A stretch of 64,000 nt of DNA from Deltaproteobacteria bacterium. Its GTDB lineage: Bacteria > JAGRBM01 > JAHCIT01. Where the stretch lies: NCBI GenBank assembly GCA_026129095.1, contig JAHCIT010000003.1, positions 248,001-312,000 of the forward strand, given 5' to 3'. Under the pieces are notes generated by a model that ran no database searches, had not been told where the DNA came from, and saw nothing but the letters and a program-made list of their open reading frames with translations. Shown piece by piece: positions 2,300 to 10,734 of the stretch (positions are counted from its first letter, which is position 1; the number at the start of each line of letters is the position of its first letter). Made by a program: the position numbers and the translations under genes.

Positions 2300-4072
2300 C
2301 TACCTCGCCCCTGCACCCTGTTCTTCGGCTGCGTGTCCCCCGACATCACTGGACCGGACCAGCAGCGGGACATCGATAATCAGTACCACTTCACCGGTCC
2401 CCAGAATGCTCGCGCCCGCGATACCGGCGGCGGGCTGCTCCAGGCTTCCGATGTATGGTCCGAGGGGCTTGAGCACAGTCTCTTCCTTGCCAAGAAGCTC
2501 CGAGACAATGACACCAACCCGCCGGTTGTAAACCCGGAGGATAATGACGTTCAGGATATCGGGCAATTCGGCCAGTGCCTTTTGGCCGAACAGTTCCCCC
2601 AGGGTCGTGATGGATACGGCGTGATGGCGCAGCATCATCACCTGCTGGCCCTTGACCCGTTCCAGTTCCGACTTCCGGACCCGGACCGTCTCGTCCACGT
2701 AGTTGAGGGGTATCCCAAATGTCTGTTTCCCGTATTTCACCAGGAATATCTGCAGGATAGCCAGGGTAAGCGGAAGCTTCAGCCGGAATAACGTACCCTC
2801 GCCGGGCGTCGACAGCACCTCCACGTTTCCGCCAAGATGCTCGACTTTTGATTTCACCACATCCAGGCCCACACCGCGGCCCTGAAGATCGTCTACCTTT
2901 CCTGCTGTCGAAAAGCCGGGCAGGAAGATCAGTTCGGCCAGTTCTGCCGGCTCCATTCCCCGAAGCTCATCCCGGCTCATCAGTCCGCGCTCCACCGCTT
3001 TTTCGGAGATGCGGGAGTAGTTGAGCCCTACGCCATCATCGATTACCTCGACAAAAACACTATTCTGGGCGTGATACGCCTTGAGCAGAACAGTCGCCCG
3101 GGGCTTTTTCCCGGCCTGAACGCGGTTCTCCGGAAATTCGATCCCGTGCCCGATGGCGTTACGGACCAGATGCAGCAGGGGATCGTGGATCTCCTCGACT
3201 ATTGTCTTGTCGAGTTCCGTGTCCTCGCCCTCCATGGCCAGTTGCACATCCTTGCCGATCTGCCGGGCAGTATCCCGGACAGGCCGGTAGAACCGGTTGA
3301 ACAGCTGGCTGATCGGCACCATCCGGATCGACAGGACCGCACTCTGCAGTTCGGTGGCGATGCTGGAAATGAATGACGAGACTTCCTCGAAACTCTTGAG
3401 CGGGATTTCCCGCCGGAGCTGAAGGAGACGGGACCGACCGGCAACCAGCTCCCCCACCAGATTGACCAGTTGATCAAGCCGGTCGGCGCTCACCCGCATG
3501 AAATGGCGGCTGGCATCCGCTTCATCGGCTGCGGCAGGTGCGGTGGCCTTCCCGCCGGAAAGAGCCTCCAGCCTTGGGGCTGGGGCATCCGCCGGTTTTT
3601 CGCTTTCCTCATGATGATCGAGGATATCAGGATTCCACGACTCATCAGCTTCTTTCAGGCCGGTAGCCAGGACCGGTTCGTGTTTTTCGATCCGGTGGAG
3701 ACGGTCGATAATGTCGCTCACGTCAACCGATGCCAGGTTGTCGGCAAGAAACTCCTTCAGGACGCCACGAGCCGCATCGACGCCTTCTAGAAGCGCGTCG
3801 TTGATATCGGGCGAAAACACCATCTTCTCGTCACGGAGTTGGCCGAGTATCGACTCCATCGCATGGGAAAGCTCTCCCAGCGGTACCAATCCGATAAACC
3901 CCGCATTACCCTTGATGGTATGTGCAACCCGGAAAATCTTCTTGATCAGGTCATGATTGCCGGGTTCGTTCTCCAGGCGGACCAGATGCTGCTGGAAACT
4001 GTCGAGAAGGTCTCTCGTTTCATCGAGAAACTCCCCGTACAGTTCCTGCAAGTTCTCATCACGGTCGCTCAT
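2300..4072 (-). CDS. cheA: Chemotaxis histidine kinase CheA
   Basis: Histidine autokinase of the chemosensory array. The N-terminal HPt domain (about 1-105) carries the phosphorylatable His51 in RVAHTIKGNAGF. An Ala/Glu/Pro linker (about 110-185) leads directly to the dimerisation helices (about 190-245, RVSADRLDQLVNLVGELV). The catalytic domain has the N box HLVRNAIGHGIE, the G1 box VEVIDDGVGLNY and the G2 box GRGVGLDVVKSKV. The CheW-like P5 domain occupies about 435-570. At 590 residues it is shorter than classical CheA: there is no room for a CheY-binding P2 domain, so the receiver may dock directly on HPt or catalytic surfaces. It lies between the receiver and cheW in one operon. Confidence 0.96.
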   Translation of the reverse strand: MSDRDENLQELYGEFLDETRDLLDSFQQHLVRLENEPGNHDLIKKIFRVAHTIKGNAGFIGLVPLGELSHAMESILGQLRDEKMVFSPDINDALLEGVDAARGVLKEFLADNLASVDVSDIIDRLHRIEKHEPVLATGLKEADESWNPDILDHHEESEKPADAPAPRLEALSGGKATAPAAADEADASRHFMRVSADRLDQLVNLVGELVAGRSRLLQLRREIPLKSFEEVSSFISSIATELQSAVLSIRMVPISQLFNRFYRPVRDTARQIGKDVQLAMEGEDTELDKTIVEEIHDPLLHLVRNAIGHGIEFPENRVQAGKKPRATVLLKAYHAQNSVFVEVIDDGVGLNYSRISEKAVERGLMSRDELRGMEPAELAELIFLPGFSTAGKVDDLQGRGVGLDVVKSKVEHLGGNVEVLSTPGEGTLFRLKLPLTLAILQIFLVKYGKQTFGIPLNYVDETVRVRKSELERVKGQQVMMLRHHAVSITTLGELFGQKALAELPDILNVIILRVYNRRVGVIVSELLGKEETVLKPLGPYIGSLEQPAAGIAGASILGTGEVVLIIDVPLLVRSSDVGGHAAEEQGAGAR

Positions 4073-8203: not shown

Positions 8204-9508
<1,305 letters not shown>

Positions 9509-9607
9509 CGCCGCCTTTCAGGGAGTTGCCTGGGCCCCCAATAGGCGCTATGTGGCTCCCGCGCTTTCTGGAACTCTGGCGGTTCCCGGCGCCGGATTTC
9601 TCCGTCC

Positions 9608-9684
9608 GACCCCATCGTCTAGCCAGGTCAGGACGCCAGGTTTTCATCCTGGTAACGCGGGTTCGAATCCCGCTGGGGTCGCCA
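9608..9684 (+). tRNA. tRNA-Glu (anticodon UUC)
   Basis: Complete 77-base cloverleaf including an encoded CCA. Acceptor arms GACCCCA (9608-9614) and TGGGGTC (9674-9680) pair perfectly, G9681 is the discriminator and CCA occupies 9682-9684. The anticodon stem CCAGG/CCTGG encloses loop TTTTCAT, placing TTC at the anticodon. The T arm carries GGTTCGAATCC. It stands alone between the DUF1015 gene and a gene-free stretch. Confidence 0.97.
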
Positions 9685-9844
9685 AACTTTCAACGCATCC
9701 TTACTGTTTCTTGTCTCGCCCTTGTACGGCGACATGCAGGTCGGGCCGCCGCTACTTCACTGCCCCTTGCAACTATAATCAGAACTGATTTCTGTTTCTA
9801 ATAACCCTTTTCCGGCATTCCCAGAGGCCAGGTCCGTCCTGTGG

Positions 9845-9871
9845 CCACGCCTCACCTCAATCGAGGCGTGG
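9845..9871 (+). other. Perfect 9-bp hairpin
   Basis: CCACGCCTC (9845-9853) and GAGGCGTGG (9863-9871) are perfect inverted repeats around a 9-base loop. No T-run follows, so it is not a classical intrinsic terminator. Its right arm forms the beginning of the first GTGG array. Confidence 0.6.
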
Positions 9872-9894
9872 TGAGCCGTGGTGAGCCGTGGTGA
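9861..9894 (+). repeat. Phased GTGG array, copy 1
   Basis: Three GTGG units at 9868, 9878 and 9888, exactly one helical turn (10 bp) apart, two of them within identical GTGAGCCGTG decamers. A second, degenerate copy lies 102 bases downstream. Aligned over 34 positions the two copies share about 26 bases. Confidence 0.6.
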
Positions 9895-9926
9895 TTATAA
9901 ATAGCTGTTTTAACTTGCTATTTTTG

Positions 9927-9942
9927 TGTGATCTCCATCACG
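9927..9942 (+). promoter_or_regulatory. CRP/FNR-type palindrome
   Basis: TGTGA (9927-9931), six spacer bases, then TCACG (9938-9942). This matches nine of ten half-site positions of the CRP consensus TGTGA-N6-TCACA. It lies in A+T-rich DNA between the two GTGG arrays, about 300 bases before the peroxidase gene. No promoter can be assigned with confidence; TTATAAAT just upstream (about 9895-9902) could be a -10 element. The call is a motif match only. Confidence 0.4.
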
Positions 9943-9962
9943 TTCTACCGGCCTGACCCGTG

Positions 9963-9996
9963 TTGAGGTGTGGCGAAGCGTGGTGCGCCGTGGCGG
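9963..9996 (+). repeat. Phased GTGG array, copy 2
   Basis: GTGG at 9970, 9980 and 9990, again with a 10-bp period, preceded by TTGAGG as copy 1 is by TCGAGG. The distance between the copies (102 bp) is close to ten helical turns, so all six GTGG blocks would lie on one face of the DNA. Confidence 0.55.
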
Positions 9997-10245
9997 CGGC
10001 CCGGTTCACCCGCCGGGTGCAACCCAAGGCAGCTGCCAGTTCTCTGGGACGCCAGTTTCCTGAAATAGAAGCAATTTGCTTAATGACCAAGACCCTTACG
10101 GCCGGGCAGGCCGCTCATTTGATGGAGCGCGATGCCCCCTGTCCGCCGCCCATTATACCATGTCACCCTGAACCGGCCGGGTGGCTCGCCAGTACGGCCG
10201 GGGCCATGTAGAGTCATGCCTCCATACACGACGGAGGACCCCAGA

Positions 10246-10734
10246 ATGACTTTCCATGACTTCAGCCTTCACATGCTGACGGGCAAGCCCCTCAGCCTTT
10301 CGCTCTACAGCGGCCATCCGGTTCTGGCAGTGAATGTGGCCAGCAAGTGCGGCCTGACTCCCCAGTACGCCCAGCTCCAGGCGATGCACGAGACGCTGGG
10401 GCCCAAGGGGCTCAGGATCGTCGGGTTCCCCTGCAATGATTTCGGCAAGCAGGAACCGGGAACGCCCGAGGAGATCGGACAGTTCTGCACGAAAAACTAC
10501 GGCGTCGAATTCGATATCACCGAAAAGATCCATGTCAATGGCCCGGAAACCCATCCGCTCTACAAGGACTTCCTGAAATCAAAGGAACACAACCGGTTCA
10601 ATCCGGGAGATGTGCAGTGGAACTTCCAGAAATATCTCATCTCGAAAGACGGGAAGGTCATCGGCGGCTGGAACCCGCAGGTGAAACCCAACGCGCCGGA
10701 AATCGTCGAGGCGATTGAGGCTGCGCTGAAGTAG
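10246..10734 (+). CDS. Glutathione peroxidase-family thiol peroxidase
   Basis: Reduces hydrogen and organic peroxides; bacterial cysteine forms often use thioredoxin rather than glutathione. The 162-residue protein has the catalytic tetrad typical of the family: Cys35 in NVASKCGLTPQY, Gln69 in FPCNDFGKQEPG, Trp125-Asn126 in VQWNFQKYLI. Cys35 is encoded by an ordinary TGC codon, so it is not a selenoprotein. The frame is open upstream, but the ATG at 10246 is chosen because GGAGGA (10233-10238) lies 7 bases before it and the family N-terminus begins here (FHDFSLHMLTG). The next gene starts 2 bases after its stop. Confidence 0.93.
   Translation: MTFHDFSLHMLTGKPLSLSLYSGHPVLAVNVASKCGLTPQYAQLQAMHETLGPKGLRIVGFPCNDFGKQEPGTPEEIGQFCTKNYGVEFDITEKIHVNGPETHPLYKDFLKSKEHNRFNPGDVQWNFQKYLISKDGKVIGGWNPQVKPNAPEIVEAIEAALK

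What the first reader, a model, noticed from the sequence alone, without database searches (positions are those of the whole stretch)
9845..9996. Helically phased GTGG arrays flanking a CRP/FNR-like site downstream of tRNA-Glu
Two 34-bp copies, 102 bp apart, each carry GTGG at exactly 10-bp steps (9868/9878/9888 and 9970/9980/9990), about 26 of 34 positions matching. Between them are an A+T-rich segment and TGTGA-N6-TCACG. All six blocks would face the same side of the helix. No gene explains them. It could be a multimeric protein-binding site, a looping operator or a relic of an integrated element at a tRNA gene.
Basis: seen in the sequence. Interest (0 to 1): 0.55.

Follow-up and report, generated by a model that had tools for sequence, protein, structure and literature searches.

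The report
Dispersed decamer repeats beside dead toxin cassette
The phased GTGG blocks are real: they belong to a repeat family scattered between the genes of this one uncultured bacterium, and the copy in this window looks like the leftover upstream region of a mobile Rhs-type toxin cassette whose toxin and immunity genes are gone.

Summary
The region is one of 7 copies (76-92% alike) of a ~400-bp repeat in this genome. In two copies the repeat lies directly upstream of an orphan rhs C-terminal gene plus a small, probably immunity, gene. The window copy lacks both genes and keeps only a 46-bp scrap of their far flank (9705-9750), so it is most likely a relic. The decamer (GTGGTGAGSC)n also stands alone at 16 other intergenic sites with 2-12 units. 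No second copy was found in 97 other genomes, GTDB 220, IMG/VR, phages or plasmids, apart from one chance coding match. Within the element the arrays and the palindrome are the best-conserved parts. In 6 of 6 tandem contexts the C-rich strand is sense, and in 5 of 7 tandem or convergent contexts it starts 12-21 nt after a stop codon. That fits an RNA 3'-end (rut-like) role better than a promoter operator, but 6 divergent sites and modest C/G ratios weaken it. No integrase, att duplicate or conserved RNA fold was found. Verdict: real, species-specific dispersed repeat family; function unproven; moderate interest.

The parts
9755..10180 (-). Window copy of the ~400-bp dispersed element (7 copies in genome); strand given is the direction of the orphan rhs gene where one is present
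   Evidence: homology from about 9757/9775 to 10180, 76-92% pairwise identity among copies
9863..9894 (+). First decamer array, GTGG at 9868/9878/9888 (C-rich strand is the minus strand)
9960..9993 (+). Second decamer array, GTGG at 9970/9980/9990; one extra unit in 3 of 7 copies
9845..9871 (.). Inverted unit CCACGCCTC / GAGGCGTGG around a 9-nt loop
   Evidence: arms imperfect in 2 of 7 copies (C18, C5b)
9928..9941 (.).
   Evidence: 7 exact copies in the genome, all in the 7 elements
10149..10163 (-). Right-edge 15-mer with extended -10 (TGGTATAAT), promoter-like, pointing into the element
   Evidence: TGNTATAAT in 6 of 6 copies whose right edge is present; consensus match, not proof of a promoter
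9705..9750 (+). 46-bp scrap of a membrane-protein ORF that in C17, C5a and C5b lies beyond the immunity gene
9751..9774 (.). Junction where C5a has about 1.5 kb (rhs C-terminal gene plus small gene); left-edge 15-mer decayed here
9608..9684 (+). tRNA-Glu(TTC), neighbour, not part of the element

Best explanation
Shown: the site is a decayed copy of a seven-member, species-specific ~400-bp repeat containing two arrays of a decamer that also stands alone at 16 other intergenic sites. Shown: in copies C5a and C5b the repeat lies immediately upstream of an orphan rhs C-terminal gene and a small adjacent gene. Inferred: the window copy once headed such a cassette and lost the gene pair, leaving a 46-bp scrap of the far flank. 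Inferred mechanism of the arrays: they act at RNA level through the C-rich strand (CCGCCACGGCTCACCACGCCTCAAC), as ribosome-free, weakly structured tracts just behind stop codons, most plausibly aiding Rho-type 3'-end formation or insulation. In the element they would lie in a promoter-initiated leader upstream of the toxin gene and keep it quiet. The origin part I hold at about 0.8, the RNA mechanism at about 0.3.
For: Seven copies and solo arrays. Rhs core domain TIGR03696, E 7.8e-15, in the C5a orphan; its relatives are C5b (74%) and the C-terminus of a 4293-aa open frame on C17 (80%). The 46-bp scrap matches the flank in C5a, C5b and C17. 15-mer CCGTGRTATAMTGGG at the right edge in 6 of 6 (within 2 mismatches) and the left edge in 3 of 3 assembled copies other than the window, where it is decayed. 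Arrays 0.949 versus 0.797 mean identity elsewhere, 9 of 352 circular shifts as high; arrays plus palindrome 1 of 352. C-rich strand sense in 6 of 6 tandem contexts; gap 12-21 nt to a stop codon in 5 of 7 tandem/convergent contexts, P 2.6e-5 for position plus orientation, 4.3e-4 for position alone. The C-rich strand folds weakly in the long arrays (L067 -2.9 versus -39.5 kcal/mol for the G-rich strand). Rho is encoded.
Against: The 21-nt cut-off was chosen after seeing the data; at 15 nt only 2 of 7 qualify (P 0.05). Six solo sites lie between divergent genes, where no 3' end exists, and three are unclear. C/G over 78 nt after the stop exceeds all 51 control gene ends at only 2 of 6 sites. The C-rich strand of the short arrays folds about as well as shuffles. 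No covariation supports an RNA structure on the minus strand (0 of 57 pairs with double changes). In the window the C-rich strand is antisense to both neighbours. The alternative polarity (window copy ancestral, cassettes gained) is not formally excluded, though a 46-bp gene scrap is hard to explain that way. No expression data exist.
Confidence: 0.6

Rival explanations
1. Passive dispersed tandem repeat (STRR-like): the decamers spread by slippage and recombination or hitchhike with the element, and sit between genes because insertions elsewhere are lethal; no function.
For: Unit number varies from 2 to 12 (L067 has 12 perfect units) and by one unit between copies. Neighbouring genes are functionally unrelated. 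Restricted to one genome.
Against: Arrays and palindrome are the best-conserved parts of the element. Sense orientation 6 of 6 and tight spacing to stop codons are not expected of passive spread, unless insertion itself is directed to gene ends.
Confidence: 0.4
2. Operator array: a DNA-binding protein (for example an OmpR/PhoB-type regulator, which binds direct repeats at 10-11 bp; recalled) binds GTGG-N6-GTGG and loops across the CRP/FNR-like palindrome.
For: Exact 10-bp phasing; 12 of the 13 solo sites with both neighbours called have a gene start on at least one side; promoter-like hexamers lie downstream of L067, L068 and L074 (seen by eye).
Against: Distance from array to downstream start ranges from 48 to 219 bp in tandem sites while the distance to the upstream stop is tight in 5 of 7. 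One array sits between convergent genes (L064). The palindrome is absent from the solo arrays. No coherent regulon.
Confidence: 0.15
3. Integrative-element relic at a tRNA attachment site.
For: Adjacent to tRNA-Glu; the C5a copy lies beside an integrase (L011:110-1381) and a stretch reading like a tRNA-Lys 3' end (read by eye).
Against: No integrase in the window, no tRNA-Glu duplicate, no full tRNA near the other six copies; at C5a the cassette lies on the other side of the tRNA-like stretch from the integrase.
Confidence: 0.05

Closest known systems
Short tandemly repeated repetitive (STRR) sequences of filamentous cyanobacteria
   Same: Short direct repeats in many intergenic places of one lineage, function unknown; [quoted passage not shown]
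   Different: Unit is 10 bp not the usual 7; array embedded in a 400-bp element tied to orphan rhs; different organism; no sequence relation tested
Orphan rhs-CT/rhsI modules
   Same: Truncated rhs C-terminal gene plus small neighbour outside a full-length rhs gene (PMC3150448, passages read)
   Different: Here dispersed rather than next to the full-length gene, two of them headed by a repeat with its own promoter-like 15-mer; the window copy lacks the genes
Rho utilisation (rut) sites
   Same: C-rich, G-poor, weakly structured tract with regularly spaced cytosines, here directly after the coding region (definition read in PMC6407284, passages)
   Different: Arrays are mostly shorter than 78 nt and overall C/G is unremarkable at 4 of 6 sites; period 10 rather than 11-13
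REP/BIME repeats
   Same: Dispersed small extragenic repeats
   Different: Not palindromic, 23 sites not hundreds; compared from abstracts in a search listing only

Membership tests
STRR-like dispersed tandem repeat | Short unit in direct tandem at several intergenic loci | tested here: met
   23 sites: 7 elements plus 16 solo arrays; none lies inside a Pfam-supported domain, though ORF extensions or unsupported ORFs overlap some arrays
STRR-like dispersed tandem repeat | Unit number varies | tested here: met
Orphan rhs module (window copy) | rhs C-terminal coding sequence present | tested here: not met
   no hit in the window in the whole-genome protein search
Orphan rhs module (C5a copy) | Rhs core domain in a truncated gene | tested here: met
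   TIGR03696 E 7.8e-15
Orphan rhs module (C5a copy) | Adjacent gene is an immunity gene | not testable with these tools
   139-aa neighbour without a family match; inferred from position
CRP/FNR site | Bound by a CRP/FNR protein | not testable with these tools
   consensus resemblance only
CRP/FNR site | Same site recurs at other promoters of the genome | tested here: not met
   7 exact copies, all within the element; only this one spacer pattern was searched
Rho rut site | 78-nt tract with unusually high C/G | tested here: inconclusive
   above all 51 controls at 2 of 6 sites
Rho rut site | Rho-dependent termination | not testable with these tools
   needs RNA
tRNA-targeting integrative element | Integrase and tRNA 3' duplicate | tested here: not met
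Structured non-coding RNA | Covarying base pairs | tested here: inconclusive
   plus strand 3 of 61 pairs, minus strand 0 of 57, with both sides changed; 7 similar sequences have little power; no Rfam match in 9500-10400 above gathering score but the tRNA

The most novel reading that the evidence does not exclude
(CCACGSCUCA)n is an RNA signal shared by mRNA 3' ends and by a multicopy non-coding leader heading Rhs toxin cassettes: a lineage-specific tandem RNA element read by Rho or an RNA-binding protein, which both insulates host genes and silences the cassettes, with the 15-mer direct repeats at the element's edges allowing the silencer to be gained or lost. An RRM-type protein gene borders the largest array (12 units, L067).
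Probability: 0.12. Interest if true: 0.65.

Novelty: new member of a known kind. Interest (0 to 1): 0.36.

Why it matters
It shows that what looks like a one-off operator by a tRNA is one of 23 sites of a lineage-specific repeat family with a directional bias towards gene ends, and links that family to dispersed orphan Rhs toxin cassettes. If the 3'-end bias reflects function, it would be a tandem-repeat 3' element outside the well-studied bacteria; if not, it is a clean example of how short arrays spread.

Tried and rejected
Gene in the region: ORFs overlap it mechanically but none was supported. Known RNA family: none but tRNA above the gathering score. Conserved RNA fold: the plus strand of the window folds better than shuffles (z -3.4), but the 7-copy alignments show almost no double changes on either strand. 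Spread in other organisms: 1 of 98 genomes searched (the own one) for the element; 1 of 2 genomes of the phylum (the own one) for the 16-mer; one exact 19-mer match in GTDB 220, inside a coding sequence of a MAG titled Deltaproteobacteria, judged chance (the tool may leave out the own genome); none in IMG/VR (26), phages, plasmids. Papers: none of the four 10-mers appears in an obviously related paper among the 20 of 178 hits listed (the other 158 not seen); a search on decamer intergenic repeats gave nothing closer among 10 of 12 listed. G-quadruplex reading: GG-N3 spacing holds only for the GGC variant; not pursued. CsrA-type reading of the GGA-loop hairpin on the minus strand: noticed, not tested. 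Promoters and terminators were judged by own scripts and by eye, not by the scan tool. The look at synteny in the only order-mate (peroxidase homologue, 47%) was not taken further.

Rows dropped before counts: the placement test used 7 of 16 solo sites; 6 divergent and 3 unclear (L066, L069, L072) were left out because they have no defined upstream 3' end. The C/G and terminator comparisons used 6 of those 7, leaving out L062. L062's upstream neighbour has only sub-threshold family matches. The neighbours of L071 and the second gene at L064 have no match above the curated cut-off. Control genes came from my own ORF caller (52 called, 51 used).

Full report
Observation. The six GTGG blocks and the TGTGA-N6-TCACG site are at the stated places. 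No other place in the window has three GTGG at 10-bp steps on either strand.

A dispersed element. Searching the own genome (3,668,516 bases, 23 contigs) with window 9690-10240 gave the window plus six further long matches: C11:2-376, C18:14987-15413, C5:114753-115053 (C5a), C21:13083-13500, C12:71851-72209 and C5:250078-250493 (C5b). Aligned, the seven copies are 76-92% alike pairwise. Homology runs from about window 9757/9775 to 10180. C5a is truncated on the right; C11 and C12 stop at a contig end on the left, and C21 ends just past the element's left edge.

What it is attached to. In C5a and C5b the left edge lies next to a minus-strand gene of about 340 aa that begins with a piece of Rhs core (TIGR03696, E 7.8e-15 for C5a). 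It is followed by a smaller gene that I take for the immunity gene from position alone. Related sequence occurs four times in the genome: the query itself, C5b (74%), the C-terminal end of a 4293-aa open frame on C17 (80%) and a fragment at C5:292859 (C5c, 64%). On the far side of the small gene lies the 3' part of a membrane-protein ORF (called membrane protein from its sequence; no family match). A 46-bp piece of the same ORF is what remains at window 9705-9750, 25 bp from the element. The simplest history is that the window copy once had the cassette and lost about 1.5 kb. A short CGCC match at the junction is compatible with this but was judged by eye.

Edges. A 15-mer, CCGTGRTATAMTGGG, containing an extended -10, sits on the minus strand at both edges, 404-412 bp apart in C18 and C5b. 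An extended -10 is present at the right edge in 6 of 6 copies that reach it, and at the left edge in 3 of 3 assembled copies other than the window. In 251,839 scanned bases (some stretches overlap) the only further match within 2 mismatches lies just upstream of the C5c rhs fragment, which has no element. These are promoter-like sequences, not shown promoters.

Solo arrays. The decamer occurs alone at 16 more sites, on C1 (2), C2 (4), C3 (2), C4 (2), C6 (2), C7 (2), C9 and C10, with 2 to 12 units. All 69 hits fall in the 7 elements or these 16 sites. They lie between genes: six tandem (L062, L065, L068, L070, L073, L075), one convergent (L064), six divergent (L060, L061, L063, L067, L071, L074) and three unclear (L066, L069, L072). 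Neighbours include groES, SMC, Hsp33, MoaA, HisF, PilZ proteins, a phasin and a thiolase (Pfam; groES, SMC and the CysC neighbour of L075 were named by recall from the sequence). No common theme is visible.

Direction. In all six tandem sites the C-rich strand is sense. In five of the seven tandem or convergent sites the first CCAC lies 12, 12, 18, 18 and 21 nt after a stop codon; in L068 the gap is 65 and in L062 367. Uniform placement with random orientation gives P 2.6e-5 for five of seven within 21 nt, 1.4e-4 for 30 nt, 1.5e-3 for 50 nt and 0.05 for two of seven within 15 nt. The cut-off is post hoc. By contrast the distance to the downstream start runs from 48 to 219 bp in the tandem sites.

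Mechanism. This pattern suggests that the C-rich strand works in RNA behind stop codons. Rho binding needs ribosome-free, C-rich, G-poor RNA with regularly spaced cytosines (PMC6407284, passages), and Rho is encoded here. But only 2 of 6 sites exceed all 51 control gene ends in C/G over 78 nt, and the divergent sites are unexplained. Intrinsic-terminator-like sites are rare at array sites (1 of 6) but also at controls (6 of 51), so they say little. I therefore rank a Rho-type role as the leading functional idea, close to the null of passive spread.

Conservation. Across the element the arrays (0.949) and palindrome (0.966) are more alike among copies than the rest (0.797 and 0.821); for arrays plus palindrome 1 of 352 circular shifts does as well. 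Gene conversion could also give this.

Distribution. None of 97 other genomes had the element, and the only other genome held for the phylum lacks the 16-mer. The kinship labels show no closer relative than order level. GTDB 220 gave one exact 19-mer match, inside a coding sequence; IMG/VR, phages and plasmids gave none. Because close relatives are missing, evolutionary constraint cannot be tested properly.

Conclusion. A real, lineage-specific repeat family of a known general kind, with an unexplained directional bias; the copy in the window is most likely a cassette relic.

Noticed in passing
L085:9330-16822 (G000:C17:21330-28822): A CRISPR locus with a Cas4-Cas1 fusion (NF049935) and a Cas12b effector (NF033949, E 9.6e-256), i.e. 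type V-B-like, lies next to the full-length rhs gene of this genome; a repetitive ORF near the contig end suggests the array.
   Followed up: partly
L011:110-1560 (G000:C5:111609-113059): An integrase with Arm-DNA-bind_3 domain sits beside a stretch that reads like the 3' end of a tRNA-Lys, close to the C5a orphan rhs cassette: a probable island end.
   Followed up: partly
L062 about 2831-3160 and L066 1-300: Another repeat family with CCCTCTCC...GGAGAGGG hairpins lies next to two solo arrays and shares a flank with both.
   Followed up: no
L087:3-1412 and L086:4348-6011: Further rhs-type C-terminal fragments followed by an FGE-sulfatase-like gene (PF03781 found in the C13 copy) and the same 46-bp flank, without the 400-bp element.
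   Followed up: partly
window 9928-9941, minus strand: Read as RNA the palindrome gives GUGAUGGAGAUCAC, a hairpin with GGA in the loop, invariant for GGA in 7 of 7 copies; recalls a CsrA/RsmA site, not tested.
   Followed up: no
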